Assembly (NCBI GenBank): GCA_030645235.1
Contig: JAUSMV010000030.1
Coordinates: 1,178,001-1,242,000 of the forward strand
Reading direction: 5' to 3'
Source of the DNA: Parvibaculum sp.
GTDB taxonomy: Bacteria > Pseudomonadota > Alphaproteobacteria > Parvibaculales > Parvibaculaceae
DNA: 64,000 bases
This document shows positions 34,137 through 47,039 of this stretch, one piece after another. Within the stretch, counting starts at the first letter, position 1. Every line of letters starts with the position of its first letter. Under the pieces are notes generated by a model that saw only the letters and a program-made list of their open reading frames with translations, was not told the origin of the DNA and made no database searches. Position numbers and translations under genes: made by a program.

Positions 34137-34258
34137 CCCTCCCCCCTTGAGGGGGAGGGCTAGGGAGGGGGGTCTTCTTCGTTAGACTCTTTGACCGCCG
34201 CATACCCCCACCCAAAAAATCTAAAGTAGATTTTTTGACCTCCCCACAAGTGGGAGGT
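34137..34258. repeat. palindromic intergenic repeat element, copy A
   Basis: About 120 bases between two convergent genes. It has a left hairpin with C/G-rich arms (34137-34159), a perfect 10-bp inner hairpin AAAAAATCTA-AAG-TAGATTTTTT (34214-34236) and a right hairpin CCTCCCCA-type (34237-34258). It shares its plan with the elements at 35653, 37897, 42431 and 46890. Confidence 0.75.
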
Positions 34259-35652: not shown

Positions 35653-35802
35653 AACCCTCCCCTTGAGGGAGGGTCAAACGGCGTCTTCGCCGTTTGGGGC
35701 GGGGTCGCGGTCTATCGTCTGGTTCTGAATTTGCGGTGGCTTTCGTTCCCCCGCCCCAAAAAATCAAAGGTGATTTTTTGACCCTCCCTCAAGGGGAGGG
35801 TT
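35653..35802. repeat. palindromic intergenic repeat element, copy B (150 bases)
   Basis: Outer arms 35653-35678 and 35777-35802 are perfect 26-bp inverted repeats. Inside the left arm lies a GC hairpin CAAACGGCG/CGCCGTTTG (35675-35696), and beside the right arm an AT hairpin AAAAAATCA/TGATTTTTT (35758-35779). The centre (35697-35757) is unpaired. It is the same length as copy D at 46890-47039 but carries the two inner hairpins in swapped positions. Confidence 0.85.
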
Positions 35803-35809
35803 CAAGAGT

Positions 35810-36430
35810 TCAGAACGACGGCGGCGTACAAGCAGACACAATCACGCAATCAATCGTCCCCGTGTTGCGCCATCGATGCGGCAACCGGCTATCAAAATAA
35901 TAGGCATCCCCCGCCGTCAGCGTCCGCGTTTCGCCGCCGACGGTGAGTTCAATCAGGCCCGACACGACAATGCCGCTTTCCTCGCCCGTATGGGACAGCA
36001 TGTCCTGGCCTGTATCCGCGCCCGGCTGATAGCGCTCATGCATCATCTGGATGGCGCGCCCTTGCGTGTCGCGGCCCACAAGGCGGAATGAAATCGCCCC
36101 CGCGCCGATTTCGCGCAGCTCCTTTGCGGCATAGAAAACCTTGTTGCGCGGCTTTAAATCAAGCGTCAGGAAATCCGCAATCGACAAAGGAAATCCGTCC
36201 AAGACTTTCTTCAATGAGCCGATGGACGGGCTGATGCGGTTTTGCTCGATGAGCGAGATTGTCCCATTGGTGACGCCCGCGCGTTTGGCGAGTTCGCGCT
36301 GCGACAGCCCGTGCATGGTGCGCAACTCGCGCAGACGCTGGCCGATATCGGGCAGCGCAATGTCAGCGTCGCCACTAAGCGTTTCGCCGCCATGGGCGCG
36401 GCGGAAGGGTCTCGGATTGGTCTTGGTCAT
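35810..36430 (-). CDS. XRE-family regulator with C-terminal cupin domain (PuuR-like)
   Basis: 206 residues. The helix-turn-helix spans about 27-80 (LRELRTMHGLSQRELAKRAG, then TNGTISLIEQNRISPSIG). The C-terminal cupin domain has VGGETRTLTAGDAYYFD and RLPHRW. This layout is that of PuuR-like regulators of amine or amino-acid catabolism. It is divergent from the omega-aminotransferase gene (115 bases between the starts), which it probably controls. Confidence 0.88.
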   Translation of the reverse strand: MTKTNPRPFRRAHGGETLSGDADIALPDIGQRLRELRTMHGLSQRELAKRAGVTNGTISLIEQNRISPSIGSLKKVLDGFPLSIADFLTLDLKPRNKVFYAAKELREIGAGAISFRLVGRDTQGRAIQMMHERYQPGADTGQDMLSHTGEESGIVVSGLIELTVGGETRTLTAGDAYYFDSRLPHRWRNTGTIDCVIVSACTPPSF

Positions 36431-36545
36431 GTGTTTAAGATACTCAACATTCAGCCAATGTCACGTGCGTGCCGCCCCTTGCATTCTGTGCCCCATCGCA
36501 GTCTCATCTGGCCTTGCCATTCTCACGACCGACCGGAGACCGCCC

Positions 36546-37883
36546 ATGTGCGCCGACACTGTTGCCCACCCCAATGACCTTGAATCGAACTGGCTCCCCT
36601 TCACGCCCAACCGCCAGTTCAAGCGCGAACCGCGCCTGCTCGCCCGCGCCAAGGACACGAGCTATTTCAAGCCCGATGGCACGGAAGTCCTGGACGCCAC
36701 CGCCGGTCTCTGGTGCTGCAACGCGGGCCATTGCCGCGACGAGATTGTGAAAGCCATTCAGGATCAGGCAGGCGAGCTTGATTTCGCGCCGACCTTCCAG
36801 TTCGGCCACCCCAAAGCCTTTGAGCTGGCCTCGCGCATCACCTCGCTCATGCCCGGCGACCTCGACCATGTGCTCTTTTGCAATTCAGGCTCTGAAGCTG
36901 CCGACACGGCTTTGAAAATCGCCATCGCGTATCATCGCGCCAATGGCGAGGGCAGCCGCACACGTCTCATCGGCCGCGAACGCGGTTATCACGGCGTCGG
37001 CTTTGGCGGCATCTCGGTCGGCGGCATGGTCGCCAACCGCAAAGTCTTCGGTCCCCTTCTCGCAGGCACCGACCATCTGCCGCACACCTATAATCGCGCC
37101 GAACAGAAATTCACCATCGGCCAGCCCGCCTGGGGCGCGCATTTGGCGGACGACTTGCAGCGCCTTGTCGAGTTGCATGATGCCTCCACCATCGCCGCCG
37201 TCATTGTCGAGCCGATGGCCGGTTCAACCGGCGTGCTGCCGCCGCCCGTCGGCTATCTCGAGCGCCTGCGCGAGATCTGCACCAAACACGGCATCCTGTT
37301 GATTTTCGATGAAGTCATCACCGGCTATGGACGGCTTGGCTACGCGACCGCCGCCGAGCGCTTCGGCGTCACGCCCGATATTCTGACCTTCGCCAAAGGC
37401 ATCACGTCGGGCACCGTGCCGATGGGCGGCGCTGTCGTGCGCAAGCATATTTACGACGCGTTCCAGACCGGCCCCGATCATCTGATCGACCTTTTCCACG
37501 GCTATACGTATTCAGGTCATCCGCTGGCGGCCGCCGCGGGCATTGCGACGCTCGATCTTTACAAGCGCGAAAATCTGTTTGAACGCGCGCGCGAAATGGA
37601 ACCTGTCTTTGCCGAAGCGATCATGAGCCTCAGGCACCACAAGCTCGTCGCTGACATTCGCTGCATCGGCTTGGCCGGTGCGGTTGATCTTCTGCCCATC
37701 GACGGCTTGCCGGGCAAGCGTGGGTTCGATGCGATGCGCGCCGCCTTCCACGATCACAATATGATGGTGCGTGTGTCAGGCGACACGATTGCCTTCTCGC
37801 CGCCGCTCATCATTTCCAACACGGAAATCACCGACATTTTCGACCGCTTCACCAAAGTGCTCGATCAGGTCGCGAAGGCGTAA
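36546..37883 (+). CDS. class III omega-aminotransferase (beta-alanine--pyruvate type)
   Basis: PLP enzyme that transfers an amino group from an omega-amino acid or amine to pyruvate. The N-terminal WLPFTPNRQFK marks the beta-alanine--pyruvate branch. Others: FCNSGSEAADTALKIA, IIVEP-type segment VIVEPMAGSTGV, LIFDEVITGYGRLG and the PLP lysine in FAKGITSGTVPMGG. The frame is open for 135 codons upstream of the chosen ATG, overlapping the divergent regulator, but only from 36546 does it match the family; this gives 445 residues. Confidence 0.9.
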   Translation: MCADTVAHPNDLESNWLPFTPNRQFKREPRLLARAKDTSYFKPDGTEVLDATAGLWCCNAGHCRDEIVKAIQDQAGELDFAPTFQFGHPKAFELASRITSLMPGDLDHVLFCNSGSEAADTALKIAIAYHRANGEGSRTRLIGRERGYHGVGFGGISVGGMVANRKVFGPLLAGTDHLPHTYNRAEQKFTIGQPAWGAHLADDLQRLVELHDASTIAAVIVEPMAGSTGVLPPPVGYLERLREICTKHGILLIFDEVITGYGRLGYATAAERFGVTPDILTFAKGITSGTVPMGGAVVRKHIYDAFQTGPDHLIDLFHGYTYSGHPLAAAAGIATLDLYKRENLFERAREMEPVFAEAIMSLRHHKLVADIRCIGLAGAVDLLPIDGLPGKRGFDAMRAAFHDHNMMVRVSGDTIAFSPPLIISNTEITDIFDRFTKVLDQVAKA

Positions 37884-37896
37884 GATTAAAATTCTT

Positions 37897-38020
37897 CCCC
37901 TCCCCCCTTGAGGGGGAGGGAGGAGCGCCTGCTTAGGCGCGGAGGGCGGGGGGTCTGCTTCGCAAAACCTCTACCTCTGCACCCCCCTCCCTAACCCTCC
38001 CCCCTCAACAGGGGGAGGGG
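37897..38020. repeat. palindromic intergenic repeat element, copy C
   Basis: Between convergent genes. It starts with CCCCTCCCCCCTTGAGGG and ends with a C-rich hairpin near 38020; between them is GCGCCT-GCTT-AGGCGC (37925-37940). It shares arms, but not inner hairpins, with copies B and D. Confidence 0.65.
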
Positions 38021-38031
38021 ACAGAAAAAAC

Positions 38032-39345
38032 CTACTTCTGATTATGCTCGTTGATCACTTTCAGCGACTGCCGCTCCGCAAAGCCGTAAATGCCTTTCGA
38101 CATCAGTGACGCTTCCGCCTTGCGCCGCGCACCATAGACTTCCGCGCGGATGCCATGCACTTCCACATCATCGGGTGCGGCCAGTCCTGCCATTTCAGCC
38201 AGATGACAGGCAAGGCGGAGATCGCCTGCCGCCACGAGTTCTGACGCGCGTTTCGCCAGCGCCTTCGCGCCACCGGCCAGCGTCGCCATTTCAGCGGCCA
38301 GCACTGCATCCGCCGCGGGCTTGAGGTTTGCCGGATTGCCGTCATACCAGCCGCCGTAAAGCCGCCAGATATTGTGAATGACAAATTCAGGCTCGTCATA
38401 CACAGGTTGCAGATAAGGCTTGCCCATGAGGTGCGCGGGCACTTTCACCGAATGAATAATCTCATCCAATCGCGCGCCGTTGTTCATCATATCAACGGTC
38501 TGGCTCACCAGCGTTTCAAGCGCCGTTGCAATATGATCGAGCACCATGGCAATGCGCGCCTTGCCCGCAATCGGCAGACCATGTGCGGGCAGCAATAGCT
38601 CCGGCTCTTTCGCAATCATTTCGCGCAAGGCACGCGCCCATTCGAGCGGATAGCGCTGCACCTTTTGCGGATTGCCCGCATTGGGGAAAACCCAGGTGAT
38701 AAAATCGCCGGTGCAGATCGCTTTATGTTCCGGCACATAGGCCCAGAGATGGTCGTCTGTTTCGCCGATCGCATGATGCAATTCAAAATGCGTGTCGCCG
38801 ACTTTCATGTCGAGCCGGTCAGCAAAAGTCGTATCGGGATCAATCCACGGGTTCGGACCAAAGCGTCCGGGATTTGCCGAACCGCCGCCCTCGCCCATGC
38901 GCAGTTCCGTCGCGGGCGCAAACTGGCGTGCATTGATCGTGAAGTTGTAGCCGTTCGTTGCCTCATAGCGGCGGAAGCGGGGCGAGACATTTTCATGCGC
39001 CACAATGCGCGGGCGACGATGGCCCTTCTCGCAGGCCTCGCAGATAAAATGATTGGTGCCGCCCACATGATCCGCGTGGCCATGCGTGTAGCAAATATTC
39101 GACACGGGCTCGTCGGTCCAGCTGCGCAGTGACTTCAGCACACCGCCGCCAAAGGCTTCGAGGCTCGTATCGAAGAGCACAATGCCGTCGCCTGTTTTGA
39201 AGGTGACGACATGGGAAAAGGCTTCGATCATCGCGATGCCGTTGCCAAGCTCTGACAATTCCATTGTCGGGCGGTTCACAAGCCCCGCCCCTTCGTAAAT
39301 GTCATTGTCGATGAAGCGCGCTGACAGCGCCAAAAGATCAGCCAT
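38032..39345 (-). CDS. MBL-fold hydrolase with alkylsulfatase dimerisation domain
   Basis: Metallo-beta-lactamase-fold enzyme, 437 residues. The zinc motif is THGHADHVGG (HxHxDH), with further ligands in CTGDFI and LPAHGLP. The second half has WRLYGGWYDGNPANLKPAAD, the landmark of the SdsA1/Pdsa alkylsulfatase dimerisation domain. It lacks the C-terminal SCP2-like domain of full-length type III alkylsulfatases (about 650 residues) and has no signal peptide, so the substrate may differ. It lies after an SDR gene, same strand, 112 bases apart. Confidence 0.85.
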   Translation of the reverse strand: MADLLALSARFIDNDIYEGAGLVNRPTMELSELGNGIAMIEAFSHVVTFKTGDGIVLFDTSLEAFGGGVLKSLRSWTDEPVSNICYTHGHADHVGGTNHFICEACEKGHRRPRIVAHENVSPRFRRYEATNGYNFTINARQFAPATELRMGEGGGSANPGRFGPNPWIDPDTTFADRLDMKVGDTHFELHHAIGETDDHLWAYVPEHKAICTGDFITWVFPNAGNPQKVQRYPLEWARALREMIAKEPELLLPAHGLPIAGKARIAMVLDHIATALETLVSQTVDMMNNGARLDEIIHSVKVPAHLMGKPYLQPVYDEPEFVIHNIWRLYGGWYDGNPANLKPAADAVLAAEMATLAGGAKALAKRASELVAAGDLRLACHLAEMAGLAAPDDVEVHGIRAEVYGARRKAEASLMSKGIYGFAERQSLKVINEHNQK

Positions 39346-39457
39346 AAAGGGTCTCCCTGAATTTAAGGAAGACAGTTTCGGCTTTCTCCTCCGCGCCGTC
39401 GAGCAGGAACGGATTGAATTCCGCGTGACGGAATATCAGTCCGGCGTCGGGTCGCCC

Positions 39458-40309
39458 TTATTTTTCGATCAGCCCGACCGCCTTGCCAATCGTGCGGTCC
39501 AGAAATCGCTTGGGCAGAAGCTGCGGGATCGTCCAGTTCTGCAAGCGACCACGCAAGACGGCATAGCGCACTTTGGGCTTGTCGGTCGTCAGCGCATGAA
39601 GGATCGCGCGGCCAAGGCGTTCAGGTGCAAGGCCCTGCTTGCCACTCGCTAGGAAATAGTCGCGGAACTTCACCAGCGAGGGATAATAGGCGCTGTTGGC
39701 ATAGGGCGTGATGTCCACTTCCTCCGCCTTGTTCCAGATTTCGGTTTTGACCGCACCGGGCCCGATGATGATGACGTCGATGCCAAACAACAGCAGCTCG
39801 CGGCGCAGGCTCTCCGACATGCCTTCAAGCGCATATTTGGAAGCGGAATAAGGCCCGACAAAGGGCGCGGCCTGTTTGCCGCCGACAGAACTGATATTGA
39901 TAATGCGGCCCGGTTCACCCTTGAGCGAGCGGTCCGCGCCGAGCAATGGTGCGAAAGACTGGGTGACGAGGAAGGGGCCGGTGACATTCACTTCCATCTG
40001 CTGACGGAAATCATCGACGCTCAAATCGAGGAGCGGACCTGACACGGCAATGCCTGCATTATTGACAAGCCCGAAGAGCTTCTCGCCTTTGAGCGCCGCG
40101 CGGACTTCTTCGGCGGCACGTTTGATGGCGGGCTCGTCGGTCACATCAAACAACAGCGGCACGAAATTCGCGCCGAATTCCTTCTTCAGGCGCTCGCCGT
40201 CGGCCTCTTTGCGGACACTGCCGAAAACGCGAAAGCCTTTGCCGATCAGAACTTTCGTCGCGCCCCAACCGATGCCGGTTGAAACACCTGTGATAACAAC
40301 GCTTTTCAT
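39458..40309 (-). CDS. short-chain dehydrogenase/reductase (retinol-dehydrogenase-like)
   Basis: NAD(P)-dependent oxidoreductase of 283 residues. The cofactor motif is TGVSTGIGWG at the N-terminus, NNAGIAVSG and the catalytic Tyr-x3-Lys in YSASKYALEG. Start at 40309 is chosen because GAGGGGG lies just upstream and the fold begins at MKSVVITG; the longer frame adds an unrelated 18 residues. It lies 50 bases after the GNAT gene. Substrate unknown. Confidence 0.88.
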   Translation of the reverse strand: MKSVVITGVSTGIGWGATKVLIGKGFRVFGSVRKEADGERLKKEFGANFVPLLFDVTDEPAIKRAAEEVRAALKGEKLFGLVNNAGIAVSGPLLDLSVDDFRQQMEVNVTGPFLVTQSFAPLLGADRSLKGEPGRIINISSVGGKQAAPFVGPYSASKYALEGMSESLRRELLLFGIDVIIIGPGAVKTEIWNKAEEVDITPYANSAYYPSLVKFRDYFLASGKQGLAPERLGRAILHALTTDKPKVRYAVLRGRLQNWTIPQLLPKRFLDRTIGKAVGLIEK

Positions 40310-40359
40310 ATGATGCCCCCTCGCCAAATGACCCGAAGCCAAGAAATGGTCATTCAAGC

Positions 40360-40806
40360 TCAAAGGTCAAGGTCATAGCGCAGCCAATCTGTCCTTTGGG
40401 CAAGCTTGTCATAGAGTTTTTGCGCCTGAAGATTGTCGCGCGCCGTCTGCCAATAGAGGCGCTGCCAGCCTTCCCTGCGGCCGCGCGTCGTCAATTCAAC
40501 AATCAGCGCACGGCCAATACCAAGGCCCCGCGCCTCTTCGCTCACATAGAGGTCTTCGAGATAGCAGACAGGCTTCGTGCCCCATGTGCCCGCATGGAGA
40601 TGGGCATGGGCAAGCCCGAGCGCCTTGCCCTCTTTGTCCTCAGCAATGAGACCGATGAAATGACCCGACAAGATACGCCTGAACGTGGCGTCCGAAATTT
40701 CAGGCGGCACATTGGCTTTATAAAATTCCAGATAGCCCGCCCATAAAACGTCCCAGACCGCGCGGTCGGCGGCCGTTATGAGACGGATCACGGGCGGGGC
40801 TTTCAT
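40360..40806 (-). CDS. GNAT-family N-acetyltransferase
   Basis: 148 residues. The acetyl-CoA-binding motif is CYLEDLYVSEEARGLGIGRA (R/Q-x2-G-x-G/A), with the C-terminal YWQTARDNLQAQKLYDKL. The start overlaps the stop of the upstream SDR gene (TGATG). Acceptor unknown. Confidence 0.88.
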   Translation of the reverse strand: MKAPPVIRLITAADRAVWDVLWAGYLEFYKANVPPEISDATFRRILSGHFIGLIAEDKEGKALGLAHAHLHAGTWGTKPVCYLEDLYVSEEARGLGIGRALIVELTTRGRREGWQRLYWQTARDNLQAQKLYDKLAQRTDWLRYDLDL

Positions 40807-41570
40807 CAGGAAATTGTTGCGCCGCCGTCGATGACAAGGCTCTGGCCGGTCATAAAGGCACCGGCCTGGCTTGCGAGGAAGACCGCCGCGCCCGCGATTT
40901 CGTCCGGCATGCCGATGCGCTTTAAGGGCGCACCCGAGGTTGAGCGTTCGAGGATTTCAGGATTGTCCCACAGCGCCTGCGCAAACTTCGTCTTGATGAG
41001 ACCGGGCGCAATGCAATTGGCGCGCACATTATGCGGGCCGTTTTCCACCGCGATATTGCGGGCAAGCTGGAAGTCAGCCGCCTTGGACAGACAATAGGCC
41101 CCGAGCACGGGCGAGCCTTTGAGACCGCCGATTGACGAGATAATGATGATCGCGCCGTCCTTGCGCTCGATCATCTGGGGCAGGACCATGTTGGAAAGCC
41201 AATGGTTCGATTTGACATTGGACGACATGATTTTGTCGAAAGCATCGTCGGGAATATCGCGCGAGGAACCGAAAAACGGGTTCACAGCGGCATTGCAGAC
41301 GAGAACGTCGATTTTGCCCCATTTGGCATTGGTCGTATCAACAAGGCGCTGCAGGTCGGCTTTATCGGCAATATTGCAGGGCACGGCAATGGCCGCATCC
41401 TTGTGCTTTGCATTGATGTCGCCCGCAACCTTGTCGCAGGCATCGGCCTTGCGGCTGGAAACCACGACTTTTGCGCCATGCTCGGCGAGGCGATGCACGA
41501 TGGCCTCACCGATGCCTTTTGTGGAGCCGGTGACAACGCAGACCTTTCCGGTCAGATCAAATAGCGACAT
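40806..41570 (-). CDS. short-chain dehydrogenase/reductase
   Basis: SDR enzyme of 254 residues. TGSTKGIGEA is the cofactor motif; NAAVNPFFG, the Ser in IISSIGGLKG and the Tyr-x3-Lys in YCLSKAADFQ complete the catalytic set. The start at 41570 has GGAGAA upstream; the frame extends 10 codons more without similarity. It is the first gene of the minus-strand set SDR-GNAT-SDR-(MBL hydrolase). The substrate is unknown, but with the MBL hydrolase it may act on an alkanol-type intermediate (inference). Confidence 0.88.
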   Translation of the reverse strand: MSLFDLTGKVCVVTGSTKGIGEAIVHRLAEHGAKVVVSSRKADACDKVAGDINAKHKDAAIAVPCNIADKADLQRLVDTTNAKWGKIDVLVCNAAVNPFFGSSRDIPDDAFDKIMSSNVKSNHWLSNMVLPQMIERKDGAIIIISSIGGLKGSPVLGAYCLSKAADFQLARNIAVENGPHNVRANCIAPGLIKTKFAQALWDNPEILERSTSGAPLKRIGMPDEIAGAAVFLASQAGAFMTGQSLVIDGGATIS

Positions 41571-41754
41571 ATTCTTCTCCCTATTATTGCCGTTTTTCAC
41601 TCTTATGCCTTACGGCGAATTGAGCATTATCTTCGGGCTGTCCCCAAAGGTTTTTTTGAATTTCTGCCGACTTTCTACACTATCGGGCGCGATTTCCTAA
41701 AGGGCCGGGACTTTGCGCGTATCCATCCGCCCCCAACATGACCGGAACCAGACC

Positions 41755-42426
41755 ATGCTGATGAAACGCACACTCGCTCTCGCCGTTGCAGGCTCCTTTG
41801 CGCTTGCCGCCTGCCAGACGCAAGACGCCTATACGGGCGAACAGAAAACAAGCAAAGCCACCTATGGCGCTCTCGCCGGTGCCGTTGTCGGTGCCCTTGG
41901 CGGCGCGCTGATCGGCGGCGGCGACAGCACAGACCGTCGCCAGCGCGCGATGATCGCAGGCGGCGTCGGCGCACTCGCGGGCGGCGGCATCGGTTACTAT
42001 ATGGACAGTCAGGAAAAAGAACTGACGCAGAAGCTCCGCTCCTCCGGCGTCAGCGTCACCCGCGTCGGCAATAACATCATTCTCAACATGCCGGGCAATG
42101 TGACCTTCGCCACCAATTCATCCGACATCAATGCGAACTTCTACAATGTGCTGAATTCAGTCGCCATCGTGCTGAAGAAATATGACAAGACGCTGATCGA
42201 CGTCACGGGCCACACGGATTCGACCGGCAGCGATGCCACAAACCAGAAGCTCTCGCTCGACCGCGCCACAAGCGTCTCGCGCTACCTCATCTCTCAGGGC
42301 ACAGCTTCACAGCGTTTCCTGATCAATGGGGCGGGTGAGATGCAGCCGATTGCCTCCAACAACACGCCCGAAGGTCGCGCGCAGAACCGCCGCGTCGAAA
42401 TCAAACTGACACCGCTGACGCAGTGA
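41755..42426 (+). CDS. OmpA-family lipoprotein
   Basis: Outer-membrane lipoprotein of 223 residues that binds peptidoglycan. Signal helix with lipobox LAAC (ALAVAGSFALAACQTQ), two glycine-rich segments GALAGAVVGALGGALIGGG and GGVGALAGGGIGYYMD that form an OMP-glycine-zipper, then the OmpA C-terminal domain with GHTDSTGSDATNQKLSLDRA and NRRVEI. Starts are possible at 41755 or 41761. It is preceded by a convergent-free gap and followed by repeat copy E. Confidence 0.88.
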   Translation: MLMKRTLALAVAGSFALAACQTQDAYTGEQKTSKATYGALAGAVVGALGGALIGGGDSTDRRQRAMIAGGVGALAGGGIGYYMDSQEKELTQKLRSSGVSVTRVGNNIILNMPGNVTFATNSSDINANFYNVLNSVAIVLKKYDKTLIDVTGHTDSTGSDATNQKLSLDRATSVSRYLISQGTASQRFLINGAGEMQPIASNNTPEGRAQNRRVEIKLTPLTQ

Positions 42427-42430
42427 TCTA

Positions 42431-42542
42431 GTCCTCTCCCTCTGGGAGAGGGTTGGGTGAGGGTCTTGCTTACTTCACAGCAAGCCCCTCACCCTCCGCT
42501 TACTGACGTTCGCTCCTCCCTCTCCCGCAAGCGGGAGAGGAC
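42431..42542. repeat. palindromic intergenic repeat element, copy E
   Basis: Between the convergent OmpA and glutathione peroxidase genes. Outer arms GTCCTCTCCC and GGGAGAGGAC pair across the element; each end also folds into its own hairpin (CCTCTCCCTCTGGGAGAGG and CTCTCCCGCAAGCGGGAGAG). It has a variant arm sequence relative to copies A to D. Confidence 0.65.
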
Positions 42543-42551
42543 AAAGAAAAT

Positions 42552-43028
42552 TTAATCCAGCAACGCCTCAATCTCTTTCACGACCACTTCTTCGAGCGGC
42601 CCCGTGCGGCTGCCGAACACCTGCACCAACGCACCATCCGGTCCGATCAGATATTTGTGGAAATTCCATTTCGGCAGCGCGTCCTCGCCCGCGACTTCGG
42701 CGACCCATTTGTAAAACGGATGCGCGTCCGCACCGATCACAGATTGCTTGGCGGTCAGCGGAAAGTCGATGTCGTAATTCACTTCGCAGAAGGACACGAT
42801 CTCGGCTTCCGTCCCCGGCTCCTGCGCGCCGAAATCATTGCAGGGCACGCCGAGCACAACGAGGCCGCGCGCTTTGTATTTCTCCCACAATCCTTGCAGA
42901 TCGCGATATTGCGGCGTCAGGCCACAGCGGCTCGCCGTGTTCACAACCAGCACGGCCTGACCTTTATATTGCGACAGCGGCAAGGCCTGACCGGCAATGG
43001 TGCGGAATTCAAACTGATGGGCGCTCAT
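42552..43028 (-). CDS. glutathione peroxidase (Cys type)
   Basis: Thioredoxin-fold peroxidase of 158 residues that reduces hydroperoxides. The active-site block is VVNTASRCGLTPQYRDLQGL, with Cys in place of selenocysteine, then PCNDFGAQEPG and KWNFHKYLIGPDG containing the catalytic Gln and Trp. It has no signal peptide, so it is cytoplasmic. It stands alone on the minus strand. Confidence 0.92.
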   Translation of the reverse strand: MSAHQFEFRTIAGQALPLSQYKGQAVLVVNTASRCGLTPQYRDLQGLWEKYKARGLVVLGVPCNDFGAQEPGTEAEIVSFCEVNYDIDFPLTAKQSVIGADAHPFYKWVAEVAGEDALPKWNFHKYLIGPDGALVQVFGSRTGPLEEVVVKEIEALLD

Positions 43029-43124
43029 AATCGTCTCTCCCGTAAAGTTATGATTGCACCAAGCCTAGCATGAGCATGTCCCCCAAGGCTAAGATGCATC
43101 GACCCTGAATGAGTGAGAAATTTC

Positions 43125-44489
43125 ATGTGCGATACGATGGTGGCGCGGCCGGAGGGCACAAAATCCGGTGCGCTGATATTTGCCAAGAACTCAGACCGCG
43201 GTGCCAATGAAGCGCAATATCTTCAGCACGTCCCGCGCCTCACGCATCCGCATGGCGCGAAGCTCAAATGCACCTATATCACCATCCCGCAGGTTGAAAC
43301 GACTTACGCGGTGCTGCTGTCCCGCCCCTTCTGGATCTGGGGCGCGGAAATGGGCAGCAATGAATTTGGCCTTATCATCGGCAATGAAGCGGTCTATTCC
43401 AAAATCGCACCGCAAGCGGAAGAAGCCCTTCTCGGCATGGACCTGTTGCGCCTCGGCCTTGAGCGCGCGACCAATGCTGACGAGGCCGTCGCCGTCATCA
43501 CATCGCTGCTTGAGGCCCATGGTCAGGGCGGCAATTGCGGCCATATCGGGCGCTTTGAATATCACAATTCTTTTCTGATCGCCGACCGCCACGGCGACGC
43601 TTTCGTGCTTGAAACCGTGGGCCGCCAATGGGCGCTGGAGCGCGTCGATATAAGGCGCACGATTTCCAATGCCTATTCCATCGGTGACAGGATCGAACGC
43701 GCGAGCCAGGGGCTTGTGGCGCAAGCCGTCTCGCGCGGCTTCGTGCGCGAGGGCGACGCATTCAATTTCTCCGCCGCCTATGCGCCACCCAAACGCACGC
43801 GCTTTGCGTCGGGCATGAGCCGCTTTTGCCGCTCCACCGCTTTGATGGAACGCCGTGCGCTCCAGAGCCCCGCCGCCATGATGGCGATCCTGCGCGACCG
43901 TGGCCCGCGCGCTGAACTCGAAAAAGAATGGCGGCCCGACGGCGCGATGGGCGGCACGATCTGCGCCCATGGCTCATGGGGGCCTGTGCGCCGCCACGGT
44001 CAGACCACCGCCTCATGGGTCGCCGAGCTTGGCTCCGGCCGCTCGGTCCATTGGGTGACGGGCACGTCTGCCCCCGACACGTCGATTTTCAAGCCCGTCT
44101 TTTTCGGCCCCGGTTTTGAAGGCGCGGAGCTTCCCGATTTCGGCCCCGCCCCGACCGACCGCTATGACCCGAAGACGCTCTGGTGGGCCCATGAACGGCT
44201 CCACCGCGCCGTGCTCGAAGACTACGCGCCGCGCCTCGCCGTCTATGCGGGCGCCCGCGACCGGCTGGAAGCTGGCTTCATCGCCCGCGTCGAGGCGCTC
44301 ATGACCCGTGGCGGCACGGCGTCCGAGGCAGGCGCGCTTTCCAAAACCATCTGGGCGGAGGCGGCAGAGGCCGAGACCCAATGGCTCGCTGACGTGCTCA
44401 AAATCCCCGCCCGGTCCCGCCATCTCCCCTCGCATCTTTATCGGATGCATTGGAAAAAGTTGGCCAGACTGGCAAAGATGCCCGCCTAA
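43125..44489 (+). CDS. C69-family dipeptidase (Ntn hydrolase)
   Basis: Cysteine N-terminal-nucleophile hydrolase, related to dipeptidase A and secernins. The start is set at the ATG before CDTMV, because Cys2 becomes the nucleophile when Met is removed; an upstream in-frame ATG would bury it. Further matches are FAKNSDRGANEAQ, WIWGAEMGSNEFGLIIGNEA and GGNCGHIGRFEYHNSFLIAD. It has 454 residues. Cytoplasmic. Confidence 0.85.
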   Translation: MCDTMVARPEGTKSGALIFAKNSDRGANEAQYLQHVPRLTHPHGAKLKCTYITIPQVETTYAVLLSRPFWIWGAEMGSNEFGLIIGNEAVYSKIAPQAEEALLGMDLLRLGLERATNADEAVAVITSLLEAHGQGGNCGHIGRFEYHNSFLIADRHGDAFVLETVGRQWALERVDIRRTISNAYSIGDRIERASQGLVAQAVSRGFVREGDAFNFSAAYAPPKRTRFASGMSRFCRSTALMERRALQSPAAMMAILRDRGPRAELEKEWRPDGAMGGTICAHGSWGPVRRHGQTTASWVAELGSGRSVHWVTGTSAPDTSIFKPVFFGPGFEGAELPDFGPAPTDRYDPKTLWWAHERLHRAVLEDYAPRLAVYAGARDRLEAGFIARVEALMTRGGTASEAGALSKTIWAEAAEAETQWLADVLKIPARSRHLPSHLYRMHWKKLARLAKMPA

Positions 44490-44629
44490 CCCTCCGAAAC
44501 CCGCCGGAATCCTGCCCCGAAAACTTACGAAACCGGCTGTCTTGGTTAACTTTTTATCAAAACCTCTGGTTCAGAGTGAAGAAAGGGTCAATTCCGGATT
44601 GCGGGTCATGCACCCGCTGGGGCAATGGA

Positions 44630-45883
44630 ATGTCAACGCTGAAAACTTTGCTGGCTACCGCGCTTTATGCTTTGCCGTCGTTGGGCTTAGCCTATGGGCT
44701 TGCCGGTCTGGGATTGCTCGAACCCAAACTTGCCATTCTCGCAGGCTTGATCGCCTGCCTTCTCGGCGCCGAAGCCCATGCTGCTTTTTCCCGCCGCATC
44801 GAGCGCATCAAAGTGCGCGGCGAACTCACCGAACTTTCAACCGTTGCCGCCACGCTTTCGCGCGAGCTTGATCTCGCCGGCGAGCGCATCATCGAACTTG
44901 AAGAACGCTTTGAGCGCGAAACGACCGCGCGCATGGAACGCATCTTCTCCGAAATCCGCGTTGTGGAATCGCTCGTGAAACGCCTCGCCGAAACGCGCGA
45001 CGCCCCGCCCATGCCTGCCGTGGCACAGGCCGGTGCCCCGCGCATGCAGGCAACGCTCAACAAAGCTTTCACGCCCGCCATCGTTGCGCCTGAACGCGAA
45101 GTGACCGAACTCAGCGACACAGAGCTTCTCGAAACCATCCGCCGTTCGCTCGAAAGCAACCGCGTCGATCTTTATCTCCAGCCCATCGTGACACTGCCGC
45201 AGCGCAAGGTCCGCTATTATGAAGGTCTGTCACGCCTGCGTTCGGAAGACGGCACGCTCATCATGCCGCGCGATTATATGCGCGTGGCTGAACCTGCCGG
45301 CATGATGCCGACGGTTGATAATATCCTTCTGTTCCGCTGCATTCAGGTCGTGCGCAAACTCGCCCAACGCAACAAGAATGCCGGCGTCTTCTGCAATATC
45401 TCGGCTTACTCATTGCTCGACAGCGACTTCTTCCCGCAATTTGTCGAATACATGCAGCACAATCAGGATCTCTCACAGCATCTGATTTTTGAATTCAGCC
45501 AGATGACTGTGAACGGCATGGGACCGATCGAGCAGGAAAGCCTCGCGCAGCTTGCCGGTCTCGGCTTCCGCTTCTCGATGGATCAGGTCACAAGCGTGCG
45601 CCTCAACGCGCCCGTGCTGCATGACCTCAACTTCCGCTTCGTCAAAATTCCCGCCGCCCTTCTCACAGGCGCGGCTGACGCCGACAATGACATCCATGTC
45701 GGCGACATCAAGGAAGTGCTGAAGCGTAACGGCATCCAGCTCATTGTTGACAAGATCGAAACCGAACGCGAAGTGGTTGATATTCTCGACATGAATGTCG
45801 AATTCGGTCAGGGCTACCTCTTCGGCGAACCCAAACCCGTCCGCGAAGAAGTCGTCCGCGCCGGTCAGGACATCGCGGCCTGA
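44630..45883 (+). CDS. membrane-anchored degenerate EAL-domain protein
   Basis: 417 residues. Two N-terminal hydrophobic segments (about 5-25 and 31-48), a charged coiled coil (about 55-120), then an EAL-like domain (about 160-400). The EAL motif reads EGL (YYEGLSRLR), the metal-binding DDFGxG loop is replaced by MDQVTS, while the Asn of NISAYSLL and a Glu in FEFSQ remain. It is therefore probably not an active c-di-GMP phosphodiesterase, and may be a c-di-GMP or protein-binding sensor. The start at 44630 has GGGG upstream; an alternative start at 44450 overlaps the dipeptidase gene. Confidence 0.82.
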   Translation: MSTLKTLLATALYALPSLGLAYGLAGLGLLEPKLAILAGLIACLLGAEAHAAFSRRIERIKVRGELTELSTVAATLSRELDLAGERIIELEERFERETTARMERIFSEIRVVESLVKRLAETRDAPPMPAVAQAGAPRMQATLNKAFTPAIVAPEREVTELSDTELLETIRRSLESNRVDLYLQPIVTLPQRKVRYYEGLSRLRSEDGTLIMPRDYMRVAEPAGMMPTVDNILLFRCIQVVRKLAQRNKNAGVFCNISAYSLLDSDFFPQFVEYMQHNQDLSQHLIFEFSQMTVNGMGPIEQESLAQLAGLGFRFSMDQVTSVRLNAPVLHDLNFRFVKIPAALLTGAADADNDIHVGDIKEVLKRNGIQLIVDKIETEREVVDILDMNVEFGQGYLFGEPKPVREEVVRAGQDIAA

Positions 45884-45903
45884 TTTTTCAGGTTTGAACA
45901 TGC

Positions 45904-45931
45904 AAAAGCCCCGCTCCATGCGGGGCTTTTT
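45904..45931 (+). terminator. Rho-independent terminator after the EAL gene
   Basis: Stem GCCCCGC/GCGGGGC (45908-45926) with a 5-base loop, followed by TTTTT and preceded by AAAA, so it also works in reverse. Confidence 0.85.
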
Positions 45932-46015
45932 CGTTTCTGCGGTCCTTAATTTGACACTTCTCCCCCGCCCGCTATCTTGCCGCCGACTGTAAAGCCGGAA
46001 CAAGGAACCCGTCCC

Positions 46016-46858
46016 ATGAGCACCGCCCAGATGAAGTCCGTTGTGGAAGCCGCCTTTGAGGCTCGTGACACCATCAATTTCGGCACCAAAGGCGAAGTGC
46101 GCGAAGCCGTCGAGGCGGCGTTGCAGGCGCTTGATCGCGGCGAAATGCGGGTTGCCGAAAAGTTCAAAGGCGAGTGGATCGTCAATCAGTGGCTCAAGAA
46201 AGCCGTGCTCCTGTCCTTCCGCCTCAACGATATGGGTCTCATTGAAGGTGCGCCGGGCGAGGCCAGTTGGTGGGACAAGGTGCCGTCCAAGTTTCAGGGC
46301 TGGGGTGAGGCTGAATTCCGCAAGGCCGGTTTCCGCGCCGTGCCCGGCTCCATCGTGCGCCGCTCGGCCTATATCGCGCCCAATGTCGTGCTGATGCCCT
46401 CTTTCGTGAATCTCGGCGCCTATGTGGACGAAAGCACGATGGTCGATACATGGGTGACGGTCGGCTCCTGCGCCCAGATTGGCAAGAACTGCCATCTGTC
46501 AGGCGGCGTCGGCATCGGCGGCGTGCTGGAACCCTTGCAGGCCAATCCCGTCATCATCGAAGACAATTGCTTCATCGGCGCGCGGTCCGAAGTCGTTGAA
46601 GGCGTCATCATCGGCGAAGGCGCTGTGCTGTCCATGGGCGTCTTCATCTCAGCGTCCACCAAAATCATCGACCGCGCCACCGGCGAAATCCATATCGGCA
46701 AAGTGCCGCCCTATTCGGTCGTGGTCCCCGGCTCCCTGCCCGGCAAGGCCAATCCCGACGGTTCGCCCTCACCCAGCCTCTATTGCTGCGTCATCGTCAA
46801 AACGGTGGACGCCCAGACACGGGCCAAAACCGCCATCAATGAATTGCTGCGGGACTGA
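46016..46858 (+). CDS. dapD: 2,3,4,5-tetrahydropyridine-2,6-dicarboxylate N-succinyltransferase
   Basis: Left-handed beta-helix acyltransferase of lysine/diaminopimelate synthesis. The family blocks are [56 protein letters not shown] and [20 protein letters not shown]. Start at 46016 (MSTAQMKSV) gives 280 residues, the normal length; the frame is open a further 13 codons. The next gene on the strand is dapE, after repeat copy D. The two act in consecutive parts of the succinylase pathway. Confidence 0.96.
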
Positions 46859-46889
46859 TTCAAACTCTGTCGTCCCCTTCTAATCTTCC

Positions 46890-47039
46890 AACCCTCCCCT
46901 TGAGGGAGGGTCAAAAAATCTCCTTCAGATTTTTTGGGGCGGGGTCTGGGTCTCTCGTACAATTCCGAATTTTCGTTTGCCTTCGTTCCCCCTCCCCAAA
47001 CGGCAAGACGCCGTTTGACCCTCCCTCAAGGGGAGGGTT
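46890..47039. repeat. palindromic intergenic repeat element, copy D (150 bases)
   Basis: Outer arms 46890-46915 and 47014-47039 are the same perfect 26-bp inverted repeats as in copy B. The AT hairpin AAAAAATCT/AGATTTTTT lies on the left (46913-46935) and the GC hairpin CAAACGGC/GCCGTTTG on the right (46997-47017), the reverse of copy B. The centre between them runs in the same direction as in copy B. Confidence 0.85.

What the first reader, a model, noticed from the sequence alone, without database searches (positions are those of the whole stretch)
35653..47039. Copies B and D have swapped inner hairpins around a same-direction centre
Both are exactly 150 bases, with identical 26-bp outer arms and similar centres read in the same direction. 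In copy B the GC hairpin is left and the AT hairpin right; in D it is reversed. Since the outer arms are inverted repeats, inversion of the centre or exchange between copies would give this pattern.
Basis: partly seen in the sequence, partly recalled or inferred. Interest (0 to 1): 0.6.

Follow-up and report, generated by a model that had tools for sequence, protein, structure and literature searches.

The report
Two-ended palindromes with a nuclease partner
Two copies of a small repeated DNA element really do carry their two inner hairpins in opposite order; this looks like a rare old rearrangement in a mobile repeat family that travels with a small, little-studied nuclease gene, rather than an active genetic switch.

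Summary
Observation confirmed: B (35653-35802) and D (46890-47039) are 150 nt, share 26-nt outer arms, and their centres match in the same direction (core 30/42, reverse 10/42) with GC and AT hairpins exchanged. The genome (a Parvibaculum relative) holds 25 copies with both hairpins: 12 arranged like B, 13 like D, each with one GC and one AT hairpin. On a tree of the centres the arrangement changes about 4 times (8.6 if shuffled): an inherited subfamily trait, not a live switch. The same reversal occurs in other species, best at a locus sharing one flank in two sister species. The copies are paired, inverted 'intrastrand triplex' (BoxC/PIT-type) palindromes whose second loop has grown into a hairpin; published E. 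coli pairs also always have unlike ends. New: such palindromes lie within 200 nt of 79 of 84 DUF559 (Vsr-like nuclease) genes examined, at 84 times the density further away, and genomes rich in them mostly carry DUF559. I propose that DUF559 mobilises them and that repair between copies at the inner G/C blocks re-pairs centres with ends. Mobilisation is inferred, not shown.

The parts
35653..35802 (+). copy B: complete two-ended element, arrangement I (GC hairpin beside the CGCGGTC side of the centre)
35653..35678 (+). B, left outer arm; holds the palindrome CCCTCCC-CTTGA-GGGAGGG (35655-35673)
35675..35696 (+). B, GC inner hairpin (takes the place of the second loop of a triplex motif)
35697..35704 (+). 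B, G-rich block (GGGGCGGGG with the last G of the hairpin): third strand of the left triplex motif and left inner inverted repeat
35705..35747 (+). B, centre
35748..35757 (+). B, C-rich block CCCCCGCCCC, right inner inverted repeat
35757..35780 (+). B, AT inner hairpin
35777..35802 (-). B, right outer arm
46890..47039 (+). copy D: complete two-ended element, arrangement II (AT hairpin beside the same side of the centre)
46890..46915 (+). D, left outer arm
46912..46936 (+). D, AT inner hairpin
46937..46944 (+). D, G-rich block
46945..46987 (+). D, centre, same direction as in B
46988..46997 (+). D, C-rich block CCCCCTCCCC, with the T that marks most arrangement-II copies
46997..47017 (+). D, GC inner hairpin
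47014..47039 (-). D, right outer arm

Best explanation
B and D are two copies of a short, mobile, non-coding element built from two inverted 'triplex-motif' ends (C-rich arm, loop, G-rich arm, inner hairpin, G-rich third strand) around a 43-nt centre. Shown: in the copies examined the two ends carry different inner hairpins. Shown: two arrangements of centre and ends exist and are inherited as subfamilies. Shown: palindromes of this kind sit beside DUF559 (Vsr-like, PD-(D/E)XK-type nuclease) genes in many Proteobacteria, either with the gene in the place of the centre or with elements on each side of the gene. Inferred: the DUF559 protein recognises or cuts the folded palindromes and is the element's own mobilising enzyme, the 150-nt copies being its gene-less derivatives. 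Inferred: the swap arose a few times when a break in one copy was repaired from another copy, or from itself, through the inverted G/C blocks, which replaces or turns the centre while leaving each end intact. Inferred: identical ends are removed because left and right hairpins would pair into one long hairpin, whereas unlike ends keep the folded strand branched.
For: Copies: 48 arm matches in the genome; 25 copies with both inner hairpins, each one GC plus one AT. Unlike ends across the genus: 0 of 83 parsed elements in 14 genomes have identical 8-nt stems against 13.6 expected from shuffling hairpins within genomes; with 1 difference allowed 3 against 20.7, with 2 allowed 15 against 30.6. Rare, inherited switch. 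Reversal elsewhere. Centre or half different at orthologous loci. Insertion at the D site: of 22 genomes of the genus with DNA held upstream of dapE, only the window's genome (two arms) and G003 (one solo arm at the same place) have a palindrome within 400 nt; 20 have none. DUF559: palindrome within 200 nt of 79 of 84 genes, on both sides in 45, 4.63 per kb against 0.055 per kb more than 500 nt away; 0 of 17 GIY-YIG loci in seven genomes, six of them chosen for having 5 or more palindromes; 24 of 37 genomes with full-length DUF559 have at least 3 CCCTCTCCC palindromes against 1 of 105 without; other classes 7 of 9 against 6 of 103. Nuclease and palindrome similarity go together: Mantel r 0.32 (n=40), 0.80 within the genus (n=19). 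E-x-D-G-x-x-H is present in 83 of the 84 DUF559 matches; relative of solved structure 3HRL, E 1.7e-25. Gene between two gene-facing ends: 26 of 84 loci by a loose test, 16 by a strict one; 9 have both ends facing away. Branched fold: outer arms pair and three inner stems project, z -12.2 (B) and -8.3 (D).
Against: No transposition, cutting or binding was shown; association does not prove mobilisation. Six genomes of other classes with 5 to 107 palindromes lack full-length DUF559 (G182, G188, G209, G214, G247, G297; G188 has a weak partial match), G249 has only a split gene with 22 palindromes, and G034 has 6 without a match. Conversely 13 of 37 class genomes with full-length DUF559 have fewer than 3 palindromes of the one type counted. 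Several Parvibaculum genomes with many copies (G002, G011, G021, G042; 83-93% complete) show no DUF559. No target-site duplication was recognised. Five of 84 DUF559 genes had no palindrome by my criterion (L139, L145, L149, L151, L164; L145 and L149 have imperfect ones). The heterotypy could be survivorship (long perfect palindromes are lost or misassembled). The best reversal pair (L182 against L242) shares only one flank, and that locus holds two copies in one species. At least two elements of this genome have ends of two different families (window 34137-34257, L112), so ends may be assembled independently without any turning of a centre.
Confidence: 0.6

Rival explanations
1. The ends are independent modules: each two-ended element was assembled separately from two unlike triplex-motif ends around a spacer, so both orders arise without any inversion.
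For: Mixed-family elements in the same genome (window 34137-34257, L112); in G017/G042 many elements have different outer arms (CCCGCCCC with CCCTCCCC); solo arms exist.
Against: The centres of the two arrangements are homologous, so the same spacer must have been used in both directions; hairpin identity is not random with respect to the centre (32 same against 7 opposite).
Confidence: 0.25
2. The palindromes are mobilised by something else and DUF559 is a passenger, or prefers to live beside them, for example as a repair enzyme for breaks at palindromes.
For: Some palindrome-rich genomes lack full-length DUF559. In Caulobacter a DUF559 protein (VsrA) behaves as a DNA-damage-linked Vsr-like protein (PMC12907096; passages seen, some from its summary).
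Against: In 16 of 84 loci by a strict test (26 by a loose one) the gene sits in the place of the centre between gene-facing ends. Protein and palindrome similarity covary. GIY-YIG genes show no such neighbourhood.
Confidence: 0.25
3. A live invertible switch (phase variation) that turns the centre by inversion at the inverted repeats.
For: Inverted repeats flank the centre; both orders exist.
Against: Arrangement follows the tree of centres and 11 of 13 arrangement-II copies share a point mark. I did not search for a recombinase or test the centre for a gene or promoter.
Confidence: 0.05
4. Terminal flip/flop as in AAV-like rolling-hairpin replication (recalled, not looked up): the whole hairpin is turned during copying.
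For: The predicted branched fold with two unlike small arms resembles such ends.
Against: Whole-element turning moves the centre with the hairpins, so it does not give a same-direction centre. DUF559 is not a Rep/HUH protein.
Confidence: 0.04
5. The elements act mainly as transcription terminators or RNA structures and order is neutral.
For: B and D lie between open frames (B ends 7 nt from the end of one; D lies between dapD- and dapE-like genes). The Enterobacter 638 paper proposes a terminator role for CCCTCTCCC palindromes (PMC2869309; passages seen).
Against: PMC4666352 says that an earlier study found no promoter or terminator activity of the E. coli motif (section 20, part 1); this rival does not explain the DUF559 association. 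Transcription was not examined here.
Confidence: 0.1

Closest known systems
Intrastrand triplex motifs (TM; also PIT elements, BoxC) of E. coli and more than 260 bacterial genomes (PMC4666352)
   Same: C-rich arm, loop, complementary G-rich arm, second loop, third G-rich strand; interspersed; may occur as inverted pairs; the two members of a pair differ (E. coli type A + type B, 5 of 5 in that paper; 25 of 25 here)
   Different: Here the second loop is a hairpin of 20 nt or more, pairs enclose a 43-nt homologous centre, both orders of ends occur around it, and a nuclease gene is linked. The paper states that no mobility functions were found around the E. coli motifs.
REP/BIME elements with RAYT transposases (recalled)
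   Same: Interspersed palindromes flanking a single small enzyme gene, plus many gene-less copies
   Different: The enzyme here is a PD-(D/E)XK-type DUF559 protein, not a Y1 HUH transposase; no GTAG foot in the arms of B and D
CCCTCTCCC palindromes of Enterobacter sp. 638 (PMC2869309)
   Same: Same palindrome class, one hundred copies, often two or three together
   Different: Interpreted there as terminators; no enzyme named for them in the passages seen
Vsr / DUF559 nucleases (PDB 3HRL; Caulobacter VsrA, PMC12907096)
   Same: The linked proteins belong to this family
   Different: The passages seen concern mismatch repair and DNA damage; the word 'palindrom' does not occur in that paper's text
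Vsr-like homing endonucleases (recalled)
   Same: Same nuclease class used by selfish DNA
   Different: Those sit in introns or inteins; these sit between palindromes

Membership tests
Intrastrand triplex motif (TM/PIT/BoxC) | Pyrimidine arm, complementary purine arm, then a G-rich third strand | tested here: met
   B and D at both ends. In the DUF559 loci 87 of 182 palindromes have a G-rich 9-mer within 60 nt on the 3' side of the purine arm against 28 on the other side, at 2-4 nt or further out; some of the further ones are arms of the next palindrome
Intrastrand triplex motif (TM/PIT/BoxC) | Short loops (1-6 nt in the published finder) | tested here: not met
   The second loop here is a hairpin of more than 20 nt; the published definition would miss these ends
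Intrastrand triplex motif (TM/PIT/BoxC) | Actual triplex formation | not testable with these tools
   needs CD or NMR on the single strand
REP / RAYT system | Y1 (HUH) transposase gene flanked by the repeats | not tested
   PF01797 was not searched; the gene found flanked by the repeats is DUF559
REP / RAYT system | GTAG foot beside the palindrome (recalled) | tested here: not met
   not in the 26-nt arms of B or D
MITE | Terminal inverted repeats, no gene, many copies | tested here: met
MITE | Target-site duplication | tested here: inconclusive
   flanks of the copies read by eye only: no constant direct duplication; flanks tend to extend the palindrome (CTTC..GAAG)
Invertible DNA switch | Both orientations at one locus in one population | not testable with these tools
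   no reads or strains of the species held
Invertible DNA switch | Orientation independent of sequence lineage | tested here: not met
   4 changes on the tree of centres, shuffled mean about 8.6
DUF559 (PF04480) | Profile match over the curated cut-off | tested here: met
   three genes in the window's genome, 130-143 bits against 20.6

The most novel reading that the evidence does not exclude
DUF559 (Vsr-like) nucleases are the mobilising enzymes of the triplex-forming palindromes (BoxC/PIT/TM class) scattered through Proteobacterial genomes: a transposase-less, nuclease-and-repair-driven kind of mobile element in which two unlike folded ends are obligatory and centre and ends can be recombined.
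Probability: 0.45. Interest if true: 0.87.

Novelty: new variant of a known kind. Interest (0 to 1): 0.7.

Why it matters
Triplex-motif palindromes have been known in many genomes without an agent that spreads them, and the published study of the E. coli motif reports that none was found nearby. A nuclease gene lying beside or inside them in two (partly overlapping) draws of genomes gives a concrete candidate that can be knocked out or assayed. The rule that the two ends differ, seen here in 25 of 25 copies of this genome, with no identical stems in 83 elements of the genus, and in the published 5 of 5 E. coli pairs, becomes a testable structural requirement. The swapped hairpins are a readable trace of how centres and ends recombine.

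Tried and rejected
Live switch: disfavoured by the tree of centres. Outer-arm inversion as the cause of the swap: rejected by geometry. Orthologous test at B and D: among the relatives fetched I saw no full copy at either site. G003 has a solo arm at D; L268, a named relative that covers B, has other genes and a solo palindrome of another family there. GIY-YIG as an alternative partner in palindrome-rich genomes without full-length DUF559: 0 of 17 loci, several of them in long uvrC-sized frames. A first inverted-repeat scan gave 16 of 30 genus and 13 of 29 class DUF559 loci above every control. A first palindrome count (59 of 65) dropped 18 loci because my catalytic-motif search missed them; it is superseded, which uses match coordinates for 84 loci. 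Conservation of D, G and H in the 65 aligned proteins was partly built in by that motif search; one search repeats the check without it. Places without a fetched locus, and the split gene L307, were not examined. The loose count of 26 loci with both ends facing the gene includes loci with G-rich DNA on both sides; the strict count is 16. Hairpin parsing trimmed or misread a few stems (for example L200). The spacer lengths printed come from a loose dapD-end pattern and are not used. The Parvibaculum DS-1 genome paper (PMC3368416) was opened for passages only.

Paper searches (10 of 10 used) showed no paper linking DUF559 or COG2852 with inverted or palindromic repeats. 'DUF559' plus 'inverted repeat' gave none. 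The 14 papers with DUF559 and 4 with COG2852 were judged by title and start of abstract, and two of them by passages. The library lacks most subscription papers, so this is not proof of absence. No structure was predicted.
Full report
OBSERVATION. Copies B (35653-35802) and D (46890-47039) are both 150 nt, share identical 26-nt outer arms in inverted orientation, and carry a GC and an AT inner hairpin in opposite order. Their centres match in the same direction: 47/60, core 30/42, reverse 10/42, above all 200 shuffles. The copies lie between open frames: B between a PEP-mutase-like gene and an HTH-cupin gene, D between dapD- and dapE-like genes.

HOW COMMON. The window's genome (3.83 Mb, 86 contigs) has 48 arm matches with up to 2 mismatches. 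I found 25 copies with both inner hairpins (18 with both full outer arms by the parser). With the GC hairpin placed left, 12 centres run one way and 13 the other. Each of the 25 has one GC and one AT hairpin. The distance between the hairpins is 60 nt, or 61 in two copies. Named relatives found with a neighbouring protein are mostly Parvibaculum and kin, so the genus is probably Parvibaculum. G013 is a single contig of 3,914,745 bases, which I recall as the size of P. lavamentivorans DS-1; I did not confirm that.

IS IT A SWITCH? A tree of the 42-nt cores needs 4 changes of arrangement (bootstraps 3-4; shuffled mean about 8.6; at most 1 of 500 shuffles as low). The tree rests on few columns, and its well-supported branches alone force only one change. 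Eleven of 13 arrangement-II copies share an A in the G block beside the GC hairpin; L050 and L047 do not. So the arrangement is inherited by subfamilies and changes rarely.

OTHER SPECIES. The same anatomy occurs through the genus with other hairpin stems. In 83 parsed elements of 14 genomes the two inner stems of an element are never identical over 8 nt; 13.6 are expected when hairpins are shuffled within genomes. Allowing one difference the numbers are 3 and 20.7, allowing two 15 and 30.6. Outside the window's genome, 113 pairs of elements share both hairpins: centres run the same way in 32, opposite ways in 7, and are not significantly similar in 74. The pairs are not independent, and four of the seven are marginal. 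The strongest opposite pair (score 88, shuffle maximum 26) is L182 in G042 and L242 in G017. These sister species are 97.6% identical at the dapE locus, and the two loci share 387 bp of one flank at 94%. There, relative to the shared flank, the centre keeps its direction and the hairpins are exchanged. G017 has two copies at that place and the other flank differs, so this is good but not perfect evidence. At loci shared by G002 and G011, one element keeps both hairpins while the middle of its centre differs strongly, another shares one half only, and a third is simply conserved. G017 and G042 also carry different elements in one shared gap.

INSERTION SITE. Upstream of dapE, DNA is held for 22 genomes of the genus. 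The window's genome has the full element, G003 (closest at this locus, 86% protein identity) has one solo arm at the same place, and 20 have no palindrome within 400 nt. An insertion in the common lineage followed by collapse between the two near-palindromic arms in G003 explains this; growth of a solo arm into a full element is not excluded.

WHAT THE ENDS ARE. Each end reads C-rich arm, short loop, G-rich arm, inner hairpin, G-rich block. This is the layout of the intrastrand triplex motif (PIT/BoxC) described in PMC4666352 (abstract, sections 15 and 18, section 20 part 1, and passages seen), with the second loop enlarged to a hairpin. That paper reports five inverted pairs in E. coli, always one type A and one type B (they differ in the second loop), and states that no mobility functions were found near the motifs. 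The unlike-ends rule here therefore matches a published observation for which I saw no explanation there. As a single strand, B and D fold with the outer arms paired and three stems projecting (z -12.2 and -8.3). Identical inner hairpins could pair with each other and remove the branching; that this is the reason for the rule is inference.

THE NUCLEASE. The genome has three DUF559 genes, each beside or inside a different family of these palindromes. The one at C58:417658-417972 lies between a half element and a full element of B/D's own family. The ones at C58:780257-780577 and C58:1287392-1287706 lie where a centre would be. Over 84 DUF559 loci with matches over 90 bits (30 from the genus search, 29 from the class draw, 24 from the phylum draw, plus L047), 79 have a pyrimidine-arm palindrome within 200 nt, 45 on both sides: 27 of 31, 28 of 29 and 24 of 24 by group. 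The density is 4.63 per kb near and 0.055 per kb beyond 500 nt. Control loci around dapE have 0.066 per kb. Seventeen GIY-YIG loci in seven genomes, six of them chosen for their palindromes, have none. Among nearest palindromes with a G-rich third strand on one side only, it faces the gene in 61 and away in 30. Both ends face the gene in 26 loci by a loose test and 16 by a strict one; both face away in 9. So two layouts exist: gene in the place of the centre, and gene between elements.

GENOME-LEVEL TEST. In 142 Alphaproteobacterial genomes (140 genera), at least three CCCTCTCCC-type palindromes occur in 24 of 37 genomes with full-length DUF559 (over 90 bits) and in 1 of 105 without (Fisher 8.6e-17; 584 against 14 copies). 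Thresholds of 1 and 5 copies give the same picture, and among genomes of at least 3 Mb the table is 19 of 26 against 0 of 30. In the phylum draw of 150 genomes it is 17 of 29 against 7 of 121; counting other classes only, 7 of 9 against 6 of 103 (p 1.5e-6; 820 against 221 copies). The cut-offs were chosen by me after seeing the lists, only one palindrome type was counted, the two draws overlap, some genomes of the second draw share a genus, and shared descent is not corrected. Six genomes of other classes with 5 to 107 palindromes and no full-length DUF559 remain unexplained; G249 has 22 with a split gene.

CO-VARIATION. Similar DUF559 proteins have similar palindromes: Mantel Spearman 0.32 over 40 class and phylum loci, 0.80 over 19 loci of the genus, none of 2000 permutations as high. 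E-x-D-G-x-x-H occurs in 83 of 84 matches. The nearest solved structure is 3HRL, 'Endonuclease-Like Protein', E 1.7e-25.

MECHANISM. Most likely: DUF559 protein acts on the folded ends, the element is copied or repaired into new sites, and gene-less copies such as B and D are carried along. Breaks at one copy are sometimes repaired from another copy. Because the G/C blocks beside the centre are inverted repeats, the donor centre can be taken up in either direction, which exchanges hairpins relative to the centre without making identical ends. Shown: anatomy, unlike ends, two inherited arrangements, differing centres between the same ends in sister species, the DUF559 neighbourhood. Inferred: enzyme action, route of copying, how centres are exchanged, and the reason for unlike ends.

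NOVELTY. The repeats belong to a known class; the hairpin-loop form, the movable centre and the nuclease partner are new as far as my ten paper searches reach (listed in Tried and rejected). Vsr-like DUF559 proteins are known from Caulobacter (PMC12907096; passages seen). A Legionella evolution study lists a transposase/DUF559 segment among potential recombination hotspots (PMC12308824; passages seen).

Noticed in passing
window 34137-34257: A mixed element: left end of the CCCTCCCCCC family (CTA loop, GGGAGGGGGG third strand), right end of the CCTCCCC family with an AT hairpin. L112 is similar. This suggests that ends are interchangeable between families.
   Followed up: partly
   Followed up: no
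L035, L039, L042, L044, L050, L052: In 6 of the 25 copies one outer arm breaks off after CCCTCCCTCA (one base differs in L052) and continues with nearly the same foreign sequence (about TCGCGCGTAGGCGCGAA, itself a hairpin).
   Followed up: no
genomes G182, G188, G209, G214, G247, G297: 5 to 107 CCCTCTCCC palindromes but no full-length DUF559; another agent or a lost gene.
   Followed up: partly
L241 (G017) against L200 (G042): Two different elements occupy the same gap between the same genes in two sister species, as if the site were a hotspot.
   Followed up: partly
L268, 9470-11360: At the B locus a named relative has about 1.8 kb of extra genes and a solo palindrome of the CCTCCCC family.
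   Followed up: partly
G000:C58:1287392-1287706 (L124): Third DUF559 gene of the genome, inside an element of the CCCTCCCCCC family; same palindrome type as in G004 (L140).
   Followed up: partly
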